From: Buttiauxella gaviniae ATCC 51604
Lineage (GTDB): Bacteria; Pseudomonadota; Gammaproteobacteria; Enterobacterales; Enterobacteriaceae
Length of the DNA stretch: 42,546 nt
Direction: 5' to 3'
NCBI RefSeq assembly: GCF_001654835.1
Contig: NZ_LXEP01000042.1
Span: 1 to 42,546 of the forward strand
The position numbers and the translations under genes were made by a program. The notes beneath the pieces are model-generated. The model had not been told where the DNA came from and did no database searches. It saw only the letters and a list, made by a program, of their open reading frames with translations. Below, one piece after another: positions 19,989 through 26,981 of the stretch (positions are counted from its first letter, which is position 1; each line of letters begins with the position of its first letter).

Positions 19989-20417
19989 ATGCAGTCTCAA
20001 AAGAGAACATTTGCCGAACGCATCCTGCATGCGGTGGGTTTTGAAGTCATCGCAATTGCGATTTGTGCGCCATTGGCCGCGTGGATTATGGATAAGCCAC
20101 TGTTTCAGATGGGTGCGCTGGCAGTAATGCTTTCGACCGTCGCCATGGTGTGGAACATCATTTATAACGCCGGGTTCGATAAAATCTTCCCGATGGGGCA
20201 AAAACGCCGCTTGCCACTGCGCGTCGCTCACGCGCTGGGCTTTGAAGGGGGCTTTATCCTGATTGGCCTGCCGCTGGCGGCTTGGATGCTGGATATTTCT
20301 CTACTGCAGGCGTTTATGGTCGAGATCGGTTTCTTCCTGTTCTTCCTGCCGTATACCGTAATTTATAACTGGGTGTACGACACTCTGCGTGCTCGCTGGA
20401 CACAGTGCCAGGCGTAA
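19989..20417 (+). CDS. PACE-family efflux transporter
   Basis: A 142-residue protein made of two homologous halves with two membrane helices each (RILHAVGFEVIAIAICAPLAAWIM ... VWNIIYNAGFDKIFP and RVAHALGFEGGFILIGLPLAAWML ... IYNWVYDTLRARW). This is the bacterial transmembrane pair / PACE layout; the prototype AceI exports chlorhexidine and polyamines. The conserved helix-1 Glu that couples to protons is present (GFEV and GFEGG). The start is the ATG at 19989 with GGAG 6 bases upstream; the frame itself is open from 19908. An intrinsic terminator follows. Confidence 0.92.
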   Translation: MQSQKRTFAERILHAVGFEVIAIAICAPLAAWIMDKPLFQMGALAVMLSTVAMVWNIIYNAGFDKIFPMGQKRRLPLRVAHALGFEGGFILIGLPLAAWMLDISLLQAFMVEIGFFLFFLPYTVIYNWVYDTLRARWTQCQA

Positions 20418-20428
20418 CGATAAACAAC

Positions 20429-20457
20429 AGAACGCACCGCCATGGTGCGTTCTTTTT
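20429..20457 (+). terminator. intrinsic terminator after the PACE gene
   Basis: AGAACGCACC (20429-20438) and GGTGCGTTCT (20444-20453) form a 10-bp stem with a 5-base loop and a T-tract. Confidence 0.9.
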
Positions 20458-20573
20458 CTGAGCGACTGTTTTTGCCTCAAAAACAGACAAATCCCCCCTG
20501 AAATGCACCAAAAATGGCCTGGCATATTTCCTGCTTAAACATGTTATCTCCACACGACATGAAGTGAGGAATT

Positions 20574-22013
20574 ATGATCAATATGGACCCTGGTGTTGCG
20601 TCATTTTTTGATGAAATGTTTGCTCTCGATGGCCATCATCGTGGCCATTATGGGAATTACTGGAATTGGTTGCAGCAGGCAGACAGCTCAGCGGTGATGC
20701 GCAAGAAACAAGAAGCCGCGTTACTTTTTCACCGTGTGGGGATTACTTTTAATGTCTATGGCGATGAAGATGGTGCCGAGCGTTTAATTCCTTTTGATAG
20801 CGTGCCGCGCATCATTCCCGCCACGGAATGGGCGATGCTCGATGCCGGTATCCGCCAACGCGTGCAGGCGCTAAATCTCTTTTTGCACGACATCTATCAC
20901 GATCAAAATATCCTCAAAGCAGGTGTAATTCCGGCGGAGCAAGTGTTGGCGAATGACCAATACCAGCCCTGTATGCAGGGAATAAATCTGCACCGCGATA
21001 TCTACGCGCACATCATTGGCGTGGATATGGTACGCGGTGGCGATGGGCAATATTACGTGCTCGAAGATAACTTACGCACTCCGTCGGGTGTCTCGTACAT
21101 GCTGGAAAACCGCAAAATGATGATGCGGTTATATCCGGAATTATTTGCCCAGCAGCGCATTCGTCCGGTCGAGCGCTACCCCTCACATTTGCTGCAAACT
21201 CTGCGTGAAAGCTCGCCAGTTAACGACCCAACGGTAGTGGTTCTTACGCCAGGCCGCTTTAACAGCGCCTATTTTGAACACAGCTTCCTTGCGCAGCAGA
21301 TGGGCGTTGAACTGGTTGAAAGCGCTGATTTATTCGTCAAAGAAGGCGCGGTGTTTATGCGCACCACGCTTGGGCCATGCAAAGTCGATGTGATTTATCG
21401 TCGTGTAGATGACGCCTTCCTCGATCCATTGGCCTTCCGCCCGGACTCTATGCTCGGCGTACCCGGCCTGCTCTCGGTGTACCGCACAGGTGGTGTGGTG
21501 CTGGCGAACGCCATCGGAACCGGCGTTGCTGATGACAAATCCATTTATCCCTACGTGCCCGCGATGATTCGCTTCTATCTCTCCGAAGAGCCTATTCTCA
21601 ATAATGTGCCAACATGGCAATGCCGCCATCCTGACCAACTGGGCTATGTGCTTTCACGCCTTGATCAAATGGTGGTTAAAGAGGTCCATGGCGCAGGCGG
21701 CTATGGCATGTTGATTGGCCCAGCGGCCAGCAAAGCTGAAATTGAAGCCTTCCGCTCGGTATTAAAAGCGCGCCCCCAAAACTACATCGCTCAGGACACC
21801 CTGGCGCTTTCAACCTGCCCGACGTTTGTTGACGAGGGTCTGGCACCACGGCATATCGACTTACGACCTTTTGCTCTCTACGGCGCAGAAACGCGCCTTA
21901 TCGCTGGTGGGCTAACACGTGTAGCGCTGAAAAAAGGCTCGCTGGTAGTTAACTCATCACAAGGCGGTGGCACCAAAGACACTTGGGTTCTGGAGGATGA
22001 CACATCATGTTAA
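20574..22013 (+). CDS. circularly permuted type 2 ATP-grasp protein (DUF404/DUF407)
   Basis: A 479-residue predicted amide- or peptide-bond-forming ligase of the circularly permuted ATP-grasp type. Conserved blocks are GINLHRDIYAHIIGVDMVRGGDGQYYVLEDNLRTPSGVSYM (137-176), KVDVIYRR (270-277), VVKEVHGAGGYGM (367-379), HIDLRPF (427-433) and NSSQGGGTKDTWV (460-472). They provide nucleotide- and metal-binding residues in permuted order. It is the first gene of a four-gene cluster; the next gene overlaps it by 7 bases. GTGAGGA precedes the first ATG by 3 bases; an ATG at 20583 is an alternative start. The substrate is unknown. Family work predicts synthesis of a short peptide or protein tag. Confidence 0.92.
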   Translation: MINMDPGVASFFDEMFALDGHHRGHYGNYWNWLQQADSSAVMRKKQEAALLFHRVGITFNVYGDEDGAERLIPFDSVPRIIPATEWAMLDAGIRQRVQALNLFLHDIYHDQNILKAGVIPAEQVLANDQYQPCMQGINLHRDIYAHIIGVDMVRGGDGQYYVLEDNLRTPSGVSYMLENRKMMMRLYPELFAQQRIRPVERYPSHLLQTLRESSPVNDPTVVVLTPGRFNSAYFEHSFLAQQMGVELVESADLFVKEGAVFMRTTLGPCKVDVIYRRVDDAFLDPLAFRPDSMLGVPGLLSVYRTGGVVLANAIGTGVADDKSIYPYVPAMIRFYLSEEPILNNVPTWQCRHPDQLGYVLSRLDQMVVKEVHGAGGYGMLIGPAASKAEIEAFRSVLKARPQNYIAQDTLALSTCPTFVDEGLAPRHIDLRPFALYGAETRLIAGGLTRVALKKGSLVVNSSQGGGTKDTWVLEDDTSC

Positions 22014-22936
22014 GCCGCACAGCCAGCGAACTCTATTGGATGGCGCGTTATCTGGAACGCGCTGAGAATATCGCACGGGTATTAGACGTGACTAACCGCC
22101 TTTCGATGATGCCATTTCGTGAAACCGGGCATCAGGATTTGCAGGTGCCGCTGAATTTAACCGGCAGCGGGGCGGCTTACTGGGAGTATTACCAGCAACT
22201 CACTATGCCCGGTATTTTCGACTACTTTGCACTTGATACCCGTAACCCGAGCAGCATCTATAGTTGCCTGCAGTCGGCCTGGGAAAACGCTCATGCGGTG
22301 CGTGGCAGCCTCTCTTCTGAGGTATGGGAAAGCATCAATACCGCATGGATAGAAATGAAGCGGCTGCGTAAAGAAGGAGTCAACAGCAGTAATGCCGATG
22401 ATTTTTTCGACTGGGTGAAAGAACGTTCGCATCTGTTTCGCGGCGCGATGTTTGGCACGTTGCTGCGCAATGATGCGATGTCATTTATTCGTCTGGGTAC
22501 CTTGCTGGAGCGGGCTGACAGTACTGCACGTTTGCTCGGCGTCAAAAATCAATTGTTGGATAACGACCCTGACGCGGTGCGCGAACACTACCGCATGGAC
22601 ACCCTGCTGCGTGCCGTGAGTGCACGAGAGGCATACCACAGTATCTATAAGCAGCAACTGGTGCGCGAAATGGTGGCTGACCTGCTGATTTTGCGTAGCG
22701 AAAGCCCGCGTTCATTACGTTCCTGCATTGAGGAAGTGGTGAATCAACTGGAACTGATTGGCGGGCATAGCGCTAATGCTCCACGTCGCCTGGCGCATGT
22801 TCTGCATGCTGAACTGCGTTTTAGCACGCTGGAGGATGTTTTCGACACGGGGCTGCAACACTGGCTGACAGGTTTTTTAAGCCAGGTGAATGCGATTTCC
22901 GAAAGTATCCAATATACCTATCTGGAGGCACAATGA
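22007..22936 (+). CDS. alpha-E domain protein (DUF403)
   Basis: A 309-residue all-helical protein of the alpha-E family. It starts MLSRTASELYWMARYLERAENIARVLDVTNRL, the hallmark N-terminus, and includes SSIYSCLQSAWENAHAVRGSLSSEVWESINTAW and FIRLGTLLERADSTARLLGVKN. No catalytic motif is recognised. Family members are almost always encoded beside the permuted ATP-grasp protein and the transglutaminase-like protein, so it is probably a partner or helper of the ligase. Its start lies inside the end of the ATP-grasp gene, and its stop overlaps the next start (ATGA), indicating translational coupling. Confidence 0.92.
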   Translation: MLSRTASELYWMARYLERAENIARVLDVTNRLSMMPFRETGHQDLQVPLNLTGSGAAYWEYYQQLTMPGIFDYFALDTRNPSSIYSCLQSAWENAHAVRGSLSSEVWESINTAWIEMKRLRKEGVNSSNADDFFDWVKERSHLFRGAMFGTLLRNDAMSFIRLGTLLERADSTARLLGVKNQLLDNDPDAVREHYRMDTLLRAVSAREAYHSIYKQQLVREMVADLLILRSESPRSLRSCIEEVVNQLELIGGHSANAPRRLAHVLHAELRFSTLEDVFDTGLQHWLTGFLSQVNAISESIQYTYLEAQ

Positions 22937-23733
22937 GACTGACGATTGAGCACAGCACACTCTACAGCTACGAGCAGCAAGTGAAGCACAGTACTCAATA
23001 TTTGCGCCTCACGCCGCAGGAGTCTGAACATCAGCGCATCATTTCATGGCAATTGGCGCTGCCGGAAGAAGCAGTGCAAACCACAGATGCCTTCGGCAAT
23101 ATTCTTCATGTACTCACGCTTGACCGCCCGCATCAGTCAATCAGCATTAAAGCCACTGGTGTTGTGGAAATTGCAGAAGATGAAGTGATGGATGATGGAA
23201 CGCGCGAGGCTCTTTCACCACTGGTATGGCTGCGTCATACGCCATTAACGCAACCAGATAGTGCCATTCTGGCGTTTGCCAGGGAGTACTGGCAGGGCGG
23301 TTCGCCACTCGATAGCCTGACGGTAATGATGGGGGATGTGCTGGAACGGATGCCGTACACGCCGGGAGGCACGAATGTGAAAGATACCGCAGCCCAAGTC
23401 TTCGACGCAGGGGTTGGCGTTTGTCAGGATCACGCACATGTATTTGTGGCCTGCTGTCGTAGCCTCGGACTTCCGGCGCGTTATGTTAGCGGCTATCTCT
23501 ATACCCCAGACAGCGCTCATGTTGCGACCCACGCATGGGTTGAAACGCTCATCGAAGGGCGCTGGCACACTTTTGATATCACCAACAATACGCGCAATAC
23601 CTGCCACCATTTGAAGCTGGCTGTCGGTTTTGATTATCTGGATGCCTGCCCGGTGCGTGGTGTGCGTCTTGGCGGAGGTGATGAAGGCATGGAGACGATT
23701 GCCGCGGTGCAGCGTATGCAAAGTGCACAGTGA
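22933..23733 (+). CDS. transglutaminase-like protein of the Anbu cluster
   Basis: A 266-residue protein with an N-terminal beta domain (MRLTIEHSTLYSYEQQVKHSTQYLRLTPQ), as in the bacterial transglutaminase N-terminal family, then a papain-like transglutaminase core. The catalytic triad can be read: Cys164 in GVCQDHAHVFVACCRSLGLPARYVSGYL, His200 in THAWVE and Asp215 in WHTFDITNN. It is therefore probably an active thiol peptidase or acyltransferase. It overlaps the upstream gene by 4 bases (ATGA). The family is expected to cut, transfer or remove the product made by the ATP-grasp ligase; this is inference. Confidence 0.92.
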   Translation: MRLTIEHSTLYSYEQQVKHSTQYLRLTPQESEHQRIISWQLALPEEAVQTTDAFGNILHVLTLDRPHQSISIKATGVVEIAEDEVMDDGTREALSPLVWLRHTPLTQPDSAILAFAREYWQGGSPLDSLTVMMGDVLERMPYTPGGTNVKDTAAQVFDAGVGVCQDHAHVFVACCRSLGLPARYVSGYLYTPDSAHVATHAWVETLIEGRWHTFDITNNTRNTCHHLKLAVGFDYLDACPVRGVRLGGGDEGMETIAAVQRMQSAQ

Positions 23734-23740
23734 TTTTAAA

Positions 23741-23824
23741 ATGTTCGCCTTCATCCTAATCCTCTTCCTGAGGACCAAAATGAGGGCATTAAACAGACTC
23801 AACAAAATCGAGAGTTCTCTATGA
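23741..23824 (+). other. possible 27-codon leader ORF overlapping the anbu start
   Basis: An ATG at 23741 opens a 27-codon frame rich in hydrophobic residues at its start (FAFILILFL) and basic residues after it. Its TGA lies inside the ATGA at the anbu start. The arrangement would suit translational coupling, but no good ribosome-binding site precedes it and the frame may be chance. Without it, the 87-bp gap would simply be an untranslated spacer. Confidence 0.2.
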
Positions 23825-24525
23825 CCTACTGCGTCGCCATGCGCTTATCCAGCGGCTTGATTTTTGTCAGTGATTCGCGCACTAATGCGGGTGTTGACCA
23901 TATCTCCACGTTTAAAAAACTGCATGTGTTCCAACGCAGCGATGACCGAACGTTAATCATGCAAAGTGCGGGAAACCTGGCGACCACCCAAAGCGTCATC
24001 AATTTATTGCAGCATCGTGCACAAGACGCCACCACGCAAAATCTCTATACCGTCAGTTCGCTATATGATGCGGCCGTGCTGGTGGGGCAAACCTTAAAAG
24101 AGGTGATTGCACGTGATGGAGCAGATTTCACCGCCACGTTTATTCTCGGTGGGCAGATTCGCGGTGAAGGTATGCGCCTGTTTCATATTTACGCCGAAGG
24201 GAATTTCATCGAAGCCACCAGCGACACGCCGTATTTCCAGATTGGCGAAAGCAAATATGGCAAACCGATCATCGATCGTATCGTCAGTTACGACACCGGG
24301 CTTGAGCAGGCGGTTCAGTGTGCGTTGATTTCGATGGACTCCACGTTGAACTCGAATTTATCCGTGGGCTTGCCGCTGGATGTGATGATTTATCACGGCG
24401 ATTGCTTTGACGACTCACAGCAGTACGCTATTACCGCACAGCATGAATACTTCAGCGAAATCCGCAATATGTGGGGGAGTTGCCTGCACTCGGTGTTTGA
24501 CCAGTTGCCGCCACTGCGGCTCTAA
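23821..24525 (+). CDS. Anbu, proteasome-related Ntn-hydrolase peptidase
   Basis: A 234-residue proteasome-type protease. After Met1 the chain begins with Thr2, the expected N-terminal nucleophile once Met is removed. SDSRTNAG supplies the conserved Asp (18) and FKKLHVF the catalytic Lys (33). The core continues with LIMQSAGNLATTQSVI, DFTATFILGGQIRGEGMRLFHIYAEGNFIEAT, PYFQIGESKYGKPIIDR and SVGLPLDVMIY. Anbu is distinct from HslV; it forms open-ring assemblies, has no dedicated ATPase known, and its substrates are unknown. It is the last of the four-gene cluster, 87 bases after the transglutaminase gene, with a weak GAGAG upstream. Confidence 0.93.
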   Translation: MTYCVAMRLSSGLIFVSDSRTNAGVDHISTFKKLHVFQRSDDRTLIMQSAGNLATTQSVINLLQHRAQDATTQNLYTVSSLYDAAVLVGQTLKEVIARDGADFTATFILGGQIRGEGMRLFHIYAEGNFIEATSDTPYFQIGESKYGKPIIDRIVSYDTGLEQAVQCALISMDSTLNSNLSVGLPLDVMIYHGDCFDDSQQYAITAQHEYFSEIRNMWGSCLHSVFDQLPPLRL

Positions 24526-24634
24526 CGATGAAGGGGATGTTTGCAGGATTGTGCAATCATCTAACAGCATTGCGCTACAGGAAATACACTGTTTCAGACG
24601 ACACTGAGCCGGTCAAACATACCTGGAGCGCATC

Positions 24635-26035
24635 ATGAAAACTATTAATCACATCTATATCAATGGCCAGTTTGTTACCCCACATGGCAATGAGCTGTTC
24701 GAGCTTGTTAACCCAACTACCGAAGAAACCGTCGCGCAAGTGCAACTGGCAGATGTTGAAGACACTCGGCAGGCAATTGCTGCTGCAAAAGCGGCGTTCC
24801 CAATAATGCGCAGTGCTTCCCGCGAACAGCGTATGGCCTGGCTGCAACAACTGCATGACGCCGTAAAATCCCGCGAAGTTGAATTGATTGATACCATGGT
24901 GGAAGAATACGGCTGTATGCCTGCGTTTGCTCAGGGTACTGTGAATCATGCCATCGACAGCTTTATGCAAATGCGCGATGTGCTGGCAAAATTCCCCTTT
25001 GAAATCCGTGTTGGCAACGCTCGTGTGATCATGGAGCCTTTGGGGGTGGTGGGGCTGATTACACCGTGGAATGGTAACTATGGTTTTATTGCCTCTAAGC
25101 TTGCGACGGTAATTGCTTCTGGCTCAACGGCGGTGATTAAACCTAGCGAACTGAGTGCCCGCCAGACGGCATTAATTACTGAGTGTCTACATGCCGCAGG
25201 CCTGCCGAACGGGGTGATAAATATTGTCACTGGTCGTGGTGACGTGGTCGGTGCTGAAATTACACGTCATCCTGATATCGCAAAAATCTCATTTACGGGT
25301 TCTACCGCCGTGGGAAAAACCATTGCCCGTGGTGCGGTGGATACGCTTAAGCGCGTGACGCTCGAACTGGGCGGGAAGTCTGCCAATGTGCTGCTTGATG
25401 ATGTCGATCTTCAACAAGCCATTCCACTGGCGTTGCAGGTGATGTCCTGGAACAGCGGCCAGGCATGTATTGCCGGTACACGTTTGTTAGTCCATGAAAA
25501 CCGCCTCGAGGAAGTTAAGGCACAGTTACGCCAGGACATATCTCAGTTGGAACCTGGTAAGAACGTTGGAACAGCGGTGACGGCACAGCAATATGAACGC
25601 GTGCAGGCATACATCCGCAAAGGGGTTGAAGAAGGTGCTGAATTACTCTGCGGGGGTGAAGGCCGCCCGGAAGGTTTTGAACGCGGTTACTTTGTGAAGC
25701 CAACTGTTTTTGTGAATGTTCGTAACGATATGACTATCGCCCAACAAGAAATTTTTGGCCCGGTGCTGTCGGTGATTACCTATAAAGATGACGCAGAAGC
25801 TATCGCAATTGCCAACGATACCGTTTACGGATTACAGGCATATGTAAGTGGCAAAGATGCGCAACGTACACAGACGGTTGCAAGCCAACTTATCGCCGGA
25901 CGAGTATTTGTTAACGGTGTTTATAATGAGCCACAAGTGCCATTTGGCGGTTTTAAACAGTCAGGGATTGGACGTGAATTTGGTACTTTCGGGTTGGAAG
26001 GGTATCTTGAGCCAAAAGCCATAATGGGGCAGTGA
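24635..26035 (+). CDS. NAD(P)-dependent aldehyde dehydrogenase family protein
   Basis: A 466-residue aldehyde dehydrogenase. Family elements are GLITPWNGNYGFIASKLATVIASGSTAVIKPSE (cofactor fold), FTGSTAVGKTIA, the general base Glu in LELGGKSANV and the nucleophile Cys in NSGQACIAGTRL; IFGPVLSV and PFGGFKQSGIGREFG follow. It looks complete and catalytically intact. GGAG lies 6 bases before the ATG. The AraC gene follows after 1 base, so the pair is an operon. The aldehyde substrate cannot be named; detoxification of short aldehydes is plausible. A near-palindrome GATTGTGCAATC at 24547-24558 in the leader may be a regulator site. Confidence 0.92.
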   Translation: MKTINHIYINGQFVTPHGNELFELVNPTTEETVAQVQLADVEDTRQAIAAAKAAFPIMRSASREQRMAWLQQLHDAVKSREVELIDTMVEEYGCMPAFAQGTVNHAIDSFMQMRDVLAKFPFEIRVGNARVIMEPLGVVGLITPWNGNYGFIASKLATVIASGSTAVIKPSELSARQTALITECLHAAGLPNGVINIVTGRGDVVGAEITRHPDIAKISFTGSTAVGKTIARGAVDTLKRVTLELGGKSANVLLDDVDLQQAIPLALQVMSWNSGQACIAGTRLLVHENRLEEVKAQLRQDISQLEPGKNVGTAVTAQQYERVQAYIRKGVEEGAELLCGGEGRPEGFERGYFVKPTVFVNVRNDMTIAQQEIFGPVLSVITYKDDAEAIAIANDTVYGLQAYVSGKDAQRTQTVASQLIAGRVFVNGVYNEPQVPFGGFKQSGIGREFGTFGLEGYLEPKAIMGQ

Positions 26036-26036
26036 T

Positions 26037-26981
26037 ATGCCGGAACGAGAAAACATTATGCGGCCTGAGGGCCGTATTTTAGCTGAGCTTTGTAAAAGCG
26101 TGGCGCGGCATTACCAATGTGCGGAAACGTCTGAGATGGAACTGCAAACCGCAGTGCCCTGGCTTCGATTTATCCGCGTATCTGAACCAACGCTGTTTAA
26201 CCGAGGCATGCTGGAACCGTCGATGTGCATGCTGCTTCAAGGGCGTAAAAAAATGCTCATAGGTGACAATGTCACGGAGTATGGCCCGGGGAACTACTCA
26301 ATGGCGGCGGTAGACATGCCGGTCTCCGGTCAGGTGACTCAGGCCACTGTGTCCGAGCCTTATTATGGCGTGCGCATTGACCTCAATAGTCGAGAAATTG
26401 CCGATTTAATCGTCTCATTGCAAATTACGCTGCCTGAAAAACAAGGTGAGAGTGTCAATCCTGGGGCCTGGATATCCAGTGCTGATGAAGCCTTGCAGGA
26501 TGCCTTTTTACGTCTGGTGAAAGTGCTGGATACCCCTGATGATTTACCGGTGATGTCCAAACTGATTAAGCAGGAAATTCTTTATCGCCTGGTGACATCG
26601 CCATCAGGTGCGACGTTCTGGAAACAGACGCTCTCCTGGAATCAGGGCAAAGGCGTGGGGGAAGCTCTGGCATGGATTAAGCGCCATTTTGCTGAACCGC
26701 TAAAAATTGATGAACTGGCAAAGCGTGTCGGCATGAGTACTTCAAGCCTGCATCATCGCTTTAAAGCCCTGACCGTGATGAGCCCGTTGCAATATCAAAA
26801 GCAGATCCGTCTGCTCGAAGCCAGGCGATTATTACTCAGTGGCGGCCAGGATGTGGCAAATGTCGCCTGGCAAGTAGGCTATGAATCGCCATCGCAATTT
26901 AACCGTGAATATCGTCGATCGTTTGGCGCAGCGCCTTTGCAGGATGTTGAAACGCTACGCCAGATGGGCGTTACGCTATAG
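26037..26981 (+). CDS. AraC-family regulator co-transcribed with the aldehyde dehydrogenase
   Basis: A 314-residue regulator with the AraC_N cupin-like domain ([58 protein letters not shown]) and a C-terminal double HTH ([41 protein letters not shown] ... [26 protein letters not shown]). The start may be the ATG at 26037, 1 base after the upstream stop, or the ATG at 26058. Its 3' end overlaps tam by 11 bases. It belongs to the group often linked to aldehyde or short-chain dehydrogenase genes, as YqhC is in E. coli. Confidence 0.88.

What the first reader, a model, noticed from the sequence alone, without database searches (positions are those of the whole stretch)
20574..24525. Complete ATP-grasp / alpha-E / transglutaminase / Anbu cluster
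Four adjacent genes encode a predicted peptide ligase, a helical helper, a thiol peptidase or transferase with Cys164/His200/Asp215, and a proteasome-like peptidase with an N-terminal Thr. The first three overlap by 7 and 4 bases; anbu follows after 87 bases. The association of these families is known from comparative genomics, but the product, substrate and purpose are not. All four look intact here, so the system is probably active. The arrangement suggests synthesis of a peptide or peptide tag, its trimming or transfer, and degradation.
Basis: partly seen in the sequence, partly recalled or inferred. Interest (0 to 1): 0.8.

Follow-up and report, generated by a model that had tools for sequence, protein, structure and literature searches.

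The report
Ligase and mini-proteasome operon, probably nitrogen-controlled
Four neighbouring bacterial genes of a known but unexplained kind (a bond-forming enzyme, a helical helper, a thiol enzyme and a small proteasome relative) are preceded by DNA signals that look like nitrogen-starvation switches, which suggests under which condition to look for what they do.

Summary
[quoted passage not shown] The cluster is already known; this is a new member.

A sigma-54 -24/-12 element (20520-20535) and an NtrC-type palindrome (20434-20448, also a terminator-like hairpin) precede the operon. The sigma-54 element precedes the cluster in 67 of 68 enterobacterial genomes; the one without it is decaying. 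NtrC/sigma-54 dependence is published for Burkholderia and nitrogen induction for Pseudomonas putida (where an rpoN mutant still induced it), so this extends known facts.

Two further results: Anbu almost never occurs without alpha-E (100 of 101 Pseudomonadota genomes; 16 of 17 with unlinked anbu), while alpha-E lacks Anbu in 56 of 156. This points to Anbu acting on the ligase module's product. Alpha-E is a tandem duplication with no significant PDB fold match.

Most likely: a nitrogen-starvation amide-forming and amide-cleaving cycle, Anbu hydrolysing what the ligase module makes. Chemistry and substrate remain unknown; 'tag for degradation' is not excluded.

The parts
20429..20453 (+). Terminator-like hairpin after the upstream efflux-type gene; the same inverted repeat contains the NtrC-type palindrome, so its role is ambiguous here
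20434..20448 (+). NtrC-type palindrome GCACC-N4-TGGTGC, only match in the 42.5-kb window (0.04 expected)
20520..20535 (+). sigma-54 (-24/-12) element TGGCATATTTCCTGCT, 38 bp before the ATP-grasp ATG; identical in two congeners
20574..22013 (+). circularly permuted type 2 ATP-grasp protein (amide ligase-like), 479 aa
22007..22936 (+). alpha-E protein, 309 aa, all-helical model; two tandem repeats (about residues 1-147 and 148-309)
22933..23733 (+). transglutaminase-like thiol protein, 266 aa, Cys164/His200/Asp215
23821..24525 (+). Anbu (ancestral beta subunit), 234 aa, Thr2/Asp18/Lys33
20400..24536 (+). approximate block, promoter included, that is missing between the efflux-type gene and the aldehyde dehydrogenase gene in two congeners

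Best explanation
This is most likely an Ntr-regulon operon: under nitrogen starvation NtrC and sigma-54 RNA polymerase switch on an amide-forming module (CP-ATP-grasp with alpha-E, plus the transglutaminase-like thiol protein), and Anbu is the N-terminal-nucleophile hydrolase that cleaves what that module makes, closing a make-and-cleave cycle. Shown by sequence: intact, selected genes; sigma-54 element conserved with the cluster; NtrC-type sites enriched upstream; Anbu's dependence on the module. Shown by others in relatives: induction by nitrogen limitation (P. putida), NtrC and sigma-54 dependence (B. cenocepacia), phosphate release from ATP (Y. bercovieri ATP-grasp protein). Inferred: that NtrC acts here; that the module makes a small amide or peptide conjugate; that Anbu cleaves that product, releasing nitrogen or preventing its build-up. 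Unknown: substrate and product.
For: sigma-54 element (score 13.2 or more of 15.7) in 61 of 61 enterobacterial upstream regions and 6 of 7 further ones, so 67 of 68; 137 of 5892 control chunks reach that score. Outside the family: 27 of 59 (control 139 of 5062) and, among named records, 33 of 46 (control 175 of 5792, which corrects). NtrC-type sites of at least 11/13 in 27 of 61 upstream regions against 17 of 2435 controls. Published: the DUF404/407, DUF403 and two transglutaminase-like genes fall 6.0 to 9.4-fold in a B. cenocepacia ntrC mutant and are named among common targets of sigma-54 and NtrC (PMC5491218 passages); P. putida PP_2686-2688 rise 11 to 37-fold in nitrogen limitation (PMC7801951 passages). 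Anbu and alpha-E occur in the same 68 of 392 family genomes; 100 of 101 Anbu genomes carry alpha-E, 56 of 156 alpha-E genomes lack Anbu; 16 of 17 genomes with unlinked anbu carry alpha-E.
Against: In the P. putida study the rpoN (sigma-54) mutant still induced PP_2686-2688 14 to 20-fold, as it did the urtABCD genes (6.9 to 16.7-fold), and the NtrB/NtrC assignment there is the authors' 'putative regulator'. PP_2685 (anbu) rose only 1.1, 4.8 and 1.5-fold there, and the reporter of its own upstream region was nitrogen-agnostic (PMC8050072 passages). PMC5666114 says operon expression in Pseudomonas does not change under various conditions. 34 of 61 enterobacterial upstream regions have no NtrC-type site of 11/13 or better; in the window the palindrome is also a terminator-like hairpin. 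32 of 59 and 13 of 46 loci outside or beyond the family set show no sigma-54 element at 13.2. That threshold is the lowest family score, so the family count is partly circular; at 14.0 only 13 of 61 family regions pass (control 29 of 5896). Pull-downs and peptidase assays of a relative were negative and co-expression gave no other Anbu form. Phyletic dependence cannot say what Anbu acts on. The fusion model left the domain arrangement open (pTM 0.62).
Confidence: 0.5

Rival explanations
1. Protein tagging: the ligase and thiol protein attach a peptide or crosslink to proteins and Anbu degrades or deconjugates the tagged proteins (as in earlier hypotheses).
For: Earlier authors propose tagging, deubiquitinase-like or degradation roles (PMC6376114 passages). 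One-way dependence of Anbu on the module fits it too.
Against: No AAA+ partner gene, open ring (PMC5666114 passages), no activity on three tested substrates; no recurrent candidate tag gene among neighbouring ORFs of 90 aa or more (shorter genes were not examined).
Confidence: 0.17
2. Biosynthesis: all four enzymes work forward to make one product, with Anbu acting as a transferase or ligase (its relative connectase is a protein ligase) or as a processing amidase.
For: Connectase, a proteasome homologue, is a ligase and not a protease (PMC8665760 passages). Anbu has no demonstrated hydrolase activity in the papers seen. One conserved gene order in 61 of 61 loci.
Against: The module lacks Anbu in 56 of 156 genomes, so Anbu is dispensable for it; anbu is often unlinked.
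Confidence: 0.2
3. Anbu is a general peptidase for protein turnover in nitrogen starvation, with the other three only activating it.
For: Anbu is up in nitrogen limitation in some studies; protein quality control is the reading given in PMC12316311.
Against: No activity on peptides; the ligase module is the more widespread part and exists without Anbu.
Confidence: 0.1

Closest known systems
Anbu / alpha-E / CP-ATP-grasp / transglutaminase operon (Iyer 2009, not held; known to me from recall and from PMC5666114 and PMC6376114)
   Same: Same four families in the same order; Anbu is close to solved chain 5nyw.
   Different: Nothing in gene content. Added here: promoter conservation across enterics, one-way dependence, alpha-E duplication.
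P. putida PP_2685-2688 and B. cenocepacia I35_5080-5083
   Same: Same ligase module; nitrogen-limited induction (P. putida) or NtrC and sigma-54 dependence (B. cenocepacia).
   Different: The B. cenocepacia cluster has a large transglutaminase-like protein as fourth gene, not Anbu.
Rlo and Rim systems of Pseudomonas (ATP-grasp plus aspartic protease)
   Same: ATP-grasp protein paired with a protease; [quoted passage not shown]
   Different: Different protease family, inactive transglutaminase in the membrane; an analogy only, no membership tested.
Glutathionylspermidine synthase
   Same: 3n6x, the only solved sequence matching the ATP-grasp protein, is named 'putative glutathionylspermidine synthase'.
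   Different: The name is an annotation; that activity was not tested.

Membership tests
Anbu | N-terminal Thr, Asp, Lys catalytic set and close match to solved Anbu chains | tested here: met
Anbu | Dodecameric open-ring assembly | not testable with these tools
   Reported for relatives (PMC5666114 passages)
Circularly permuted ATP-grasp type 2 | Pfam CP_ATPgrasp_2 full length over cut-off; invariant core residues | tested here: met
   547 bits against a cut-off of 32; alignment of 34
Circularly permuted ATP-grasp type 2 | ATP-dependent amide bond formation | not testable with these tools
   Only phosphate release reported for a relative
Alpha-E | Pfam Alpha-E full length with ER motif | tested here: met
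   R18 and E168 invariant, E17 and R169 in 77 of 78
Bacterial transglutaminase-like thiol protein | Cys-His-Asp triad | tested here: met
Four-gene Anbu operon | ATP-grasp, alpha-E, transglutaminase, anbu in this order and strand | tested here: met
   window and 60 of 60 enterobacterial loci of the first fetch
Four-gene Anbu operon | One transcript | not testable with these tools
   No terminator-like site at the three junctions; RNA not examined
Ntr (sigma-54/NtrC) regulon | Conserved -24/-12 sigma-54 element | tested here: met
   a single match in 42.5 kb is not rare by itself (35 of 100 shuffles have one)
Ntr (sigma-54/NtrC) regulon | NtrC binding site upstream | tested here: inconclusive
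   Palindrome present but overlaps a terminator-like hairpin; 27 of 61 upstream regions have one of at least 11/13
Ntr (sigma-54/NtrC) regulon | Induction under nitrogen starvation in this organism | not tested
   Only in relatives, in print

The most novel reading that the evidence does not exclude
The operon is a nitrogen-starvation amide cycle of a kind not yet described: a duplicated all-helical protein without a known fold (alpha-E) works with the ATP-grasp ligase to make a conjugate, and Anbu is a dedicated small-molecule or short-conjugate hydrolase for that product, not a protein-degrading machine. That would explain the absence of an unfoldase, the open ring and the one-way dependence of Anbu on the ligase module.
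Probability: 0.3. Interest if true: 0.8.

Novelty: new member of a known kind. Interest (0 to 1): 0.5.

Why it matters
Anbu figures in arguments on proteasome origin, yet its job is unknown in the papers seen. A conserved sigma-54 element before its operon across enterics suggests under which condition to look, and the one-way dependence predicts a clean genetic test: loss of Anbu should matter only when the ligase module is present.

Tried and rejected
A 27-codon reading frame in the gap before anbu (ATGA overlap): not conserved in two congeners. Helical phasing of NtrC-type sites relative to the promoter seemed striking by eye but is not significant on distinct distances (Rayleigh p about 0.25). 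Defence system: no PADLOC match. RidA as a functional partner: a RidA-like gene lies near many enteric loci, mostly in what I read (not by family search) as a pyrB-pyrI-ridA context; the same query hit none of 59 loci outside the family and 1 of 80 named ones, itself a Serratia record. P. putida PP2689, annotated as a putative endoribonuclease, is numbered next to PP2688, so this is not closed. A constant fifth operon gene: none seen among ORFs of 90 aa or more in the fetched flanks. Domain arrangement from a natural ATP-grasp/alpha-E fusion: not settled. Relation of alpha-E to a solved fold: 0 of 306 Foldseek matches at E 0.001 or better; best profile match E 0.059, a cullin, taken as chance. 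Caulobacter: the NtrC study mentions transglutaminase only for hvyA. The sigma-54 score weights and the NtrC consensus are my own, built on recalled consensus sequences. Iyer 2009 and Hervas 2009 are not held; what they say is taken from citing papers. Whether the alpha-E duplication or enteric Ntr control is already in print was looked for only in the ten paper searches, none aimed at the duplication alone. For every paper cited I saw listings and passages found by term, not the whole text. On checking, one row (L239) proved an artefact of a short upstream stretch; one search drops it, 34 of 47 becoming 33 of 46. The rpoN-mutant values of P. putida were also found on checking; for that reason I lowered the main confidence from 0.55 to 0.5 and raised the tagging rival from 0.15 to 0.17.
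Full report
OBSERVATION. Junctions: 7-base overlap, 4-base overlap, 87-base gap (coordinates). Catalytic residues: Anbu Thr2, Asp18, Lys33 invariant in 37 of 37; thiol protein Cys164 in 38 of 40, His200 and Asp215 in 40 of 40. All four genes are under purifying selection: dN/dS 0.012-0.058 against two congeners, with dS 0.86-1.37. The simple scan found no terminator-like site at the three junctions. The cluster is known; both Anbu structure papers describe the four-gene operon and say its role is unproven (passages), and a 2021 survey says no function is known for Anbu (passages).

DISTRIBUTION. Of 392 genomes of the same family, 68 have Anbu and 68 have alpha-E; the two lists are identical. 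I fetched 60 of the 67 other family loci in a first round: all 60 have the four genes in the same order. The last 7 were fetched later: all have matches to the four genes, but alpha-E and anbu show stops or frame breaks in G318 and G375, the ATP-grasp gene too in G375, and anbu alone is broken in G347; sequencing error is not excluded. Three of the six genomes of the window's genus in this sample have the cluster. In two of the three without it the flanking genes are next to each other and a block of about 4.1 kb that includes the promoter is missing; the third has the upstream flank but no match to the aldehyde dehydrogenase gene. One empty site keeps a stretch resembling the promoter (shuffle p 0.007), which hints at loss. 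By mechanical ORF calling there are 39 distinct nearest-neighbour pairs in 61 family loci, an upper estimate because spurious ORFs add pairs; 23 of 61 share a RidA-like gene as nearest upstream neighbour. No E. coli genome has a near match (megablast, 5,426 genomes). One conjugative IncFII plasmid of Klebsiella pneumoniae carries all four genes and a sigma-54 element.

CONTROL REGION. A -24/-12 element lies 38 bp before the ATP-grasp ATG (20520-20535). It is the only match of TGGCAYN5YTGCW in the window, but a lone match is not rare (0.51 expected; 35 of 100 shuffles have one); the case rests on conservation. With a score of my own built on the recalled consensus, GG and GC required, 61 of 61 family upstream regions score 13.2 or more out of 15.7 and 6 of 7 further ones do; the exception, G318, is one of the decaying loci. 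Control 300-base chunks from the same loci reach that score in 137 of 5892 cases. The threshold is the lowest family score, so this count is partly circular; at 14.0, 13 of 61 pass against 29 of 5896 controls. Two other sets are fairer: 27 of 59 loci from other Pseudomonadota (control 139 of 5062; at 14.0, 20 of 59 against 18 of 5062) and 33 of 46 testable loci among 80 named records (control 175 of 5792; at 14.0, 26 of 46 against 36 of 5792). Seven of those 46 are Pantoea, Erwinia, Serratia or Kosakonia records, all positive; without them it is 26 of 39. So 32 of 59 and 13 of 46 show no such element: the control is common, not universal. The 59 were chosen by hand from 156 alpha-E genomes, mainly those with the best scores. 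The 16-base element is identical in the window and two congeners although synonymous sites have diverged to about one change per site.

NtrC-type palindromes of at least 11/13 occur in 27 of 61 family upstream regions against 17 of 2435 control chunks, and in 9 of 59 other loci against 25 of 2208. In the window GCACCGCCATGGTGC (20434-20448) is the only match (0.04 expected), but the same bases form a terminator-like hairpin for the upstream gene, so here it is ambiguous.

WHAT IS IN PRINT ON CONTROL. In B. cenocepacia H111 the DUF404/407, DUF403 and two transglutaminase-like genes fall 8.2, 9.4, 9.4 and 6.0-fold in an ntrC mutant and the cluster is named among common targets of sigma-54 and NtrC (PMC5491218 passages). 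In P. putida PP_2686-2688 rise 11 to 37-fold under nitrogen limitation and PP_2685 (anbu) 1.1 to 4.8-fold; the authors call the operon likely controlled by NtrB/NtrC, yet their rpoN mutant still induces PP_2686-2688 14 to 20-fold, and the urea-transport genes 6.9 to 16.7-fold (PMC7801951 passages). That speaks against strict sigma-54 dependence there, unless that mutant or growth regime is not informative. Another study has PP2685-2687 up 6.6 to 11.1-fold (nitrogen against carbon limitation, PMC3325844 passage), and a third has PP_2685 and PP_2688 up about 16 to 22-fold on nitrate against ammonium, tests the upstream region of PP_2688 among four candidate nitrogen sensors and finds that of PP_2685 nitrogen-agnostic (PMC8050072 passages). 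A 2025 computational survey lists the Anbu COG among sigma-54 regulons of alpha, beta and gamma classes (PMC12316311 passage). Marine metagenome correlations link these domains with urea metabolism (PMC3597751 passages). [quoted passage not shown] Thus Ntr control of the family is known in parts; the enterobacterial extension is what I add.

ONE-WAY DEPENDENCE. In 299 Pseudomonadota genomes alpha-E is present in 156 (E 0.001) and Anbu in 101 (E 1e-20): 100 have both, 1 has Anbu only, 56 alpha-E only, 142 neither (Fisher p 3e-37, not corrected for kinship). In the named set, 25 of 80 loci had anbu without ATP-grasp or alpha-E in the fetched stretch, some because the contig ends. So Anbu leans on the module, not the reverse. 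The simplest reading is that Anbu acts on something the module makes. [quoted passage not shown]

ALPHA-E. Model from 78 relatives: mean pLDDT 91.9, pTM 0.91, all helices. Foldseek finds no PDB match at E 0.001 or better (best 0.24). The two halves are homologous: window halves score 88 against a shuffled mean of 28 and maximum of 48 in 500; of 13 relatives sampled 11 give z of 6 or more and two are weak (2.9 and 2.3, the last out of register). Profile to profile over 137 columns: probability 99.2%, E 2e-19. The ER motif occurs in both halves (E17-R18, E168-R169). Natural fusions with a second type of ATP-grasp exist (L161-L163), which suggests a physical partnership; the model of one fusion left the arrangement open.

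MECHANISM. I favour a nitrogen-starvation amide cycle (statement above). Shown: genes, selection, promoter element, dependence. Published in relatives: induction, NtrC and sigma-54 dependence (one species), phosphate release from ATP. Inferred: substrate class, direction of Anbu, benefit to the cell. The nitrogen setting argues against a costly storage polymer and for scavenging or recycling, but that is reasoning, not data.

VERDICT. Interest 0.5.

Noticed in passing
L220 and L219 as examples: In seven loci with unlinked anbu a gene that I read as mutS lies next to it, and in seven a gene that I read as an alpha/beta hydrolase; whether these are the same loci was not checked.
   Followed up: partly
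L161, L162, L163; also L274, L277: A second cluster type with ATP-grasp, alpha-E and transglutaminase-like genes plus a fused ATP-grasp/alpha-E frame of about 850-930 codons; no Anbu match in these stretches.
   Followed up: partly
L233, L234, L246 (Polynucleobacter, Duganella, a Burkholderiaceae MAG): NtrC-type palindromes (11/13) about 46-51 bp before the ATP-grasp start where no sigma-54 element is seen; possibly another regulator.
   Followed up: no
L287: All four genes with a sigma-54 element on a conjugative IncFII plasmid of Klebsiella pneumoniae; the TonB receptor gene upstream is also found upstream in record CP125156.1 (L289), so the piece may be of chromosomal origin.
   Followed up: partly
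L059: An extra stretch of about 2.2 kb separates the transglutaminase gene from anbu in one enterobacterial genome.
   Followed up: no
phage records CAKLQH020000004.1 and CAKLQF020000002.1: Records labelled Acinetobacter phage hold a DUF404 (ATP-grasp) gene; may be host DNA.
   Followed up: no
window 24635-26981: Aldehyde dehydrogenase and AraC-type regulator genes follow the cluster; the former abuts the efflux-type gene at the empty sites of two congeners.
   Followed up: partly
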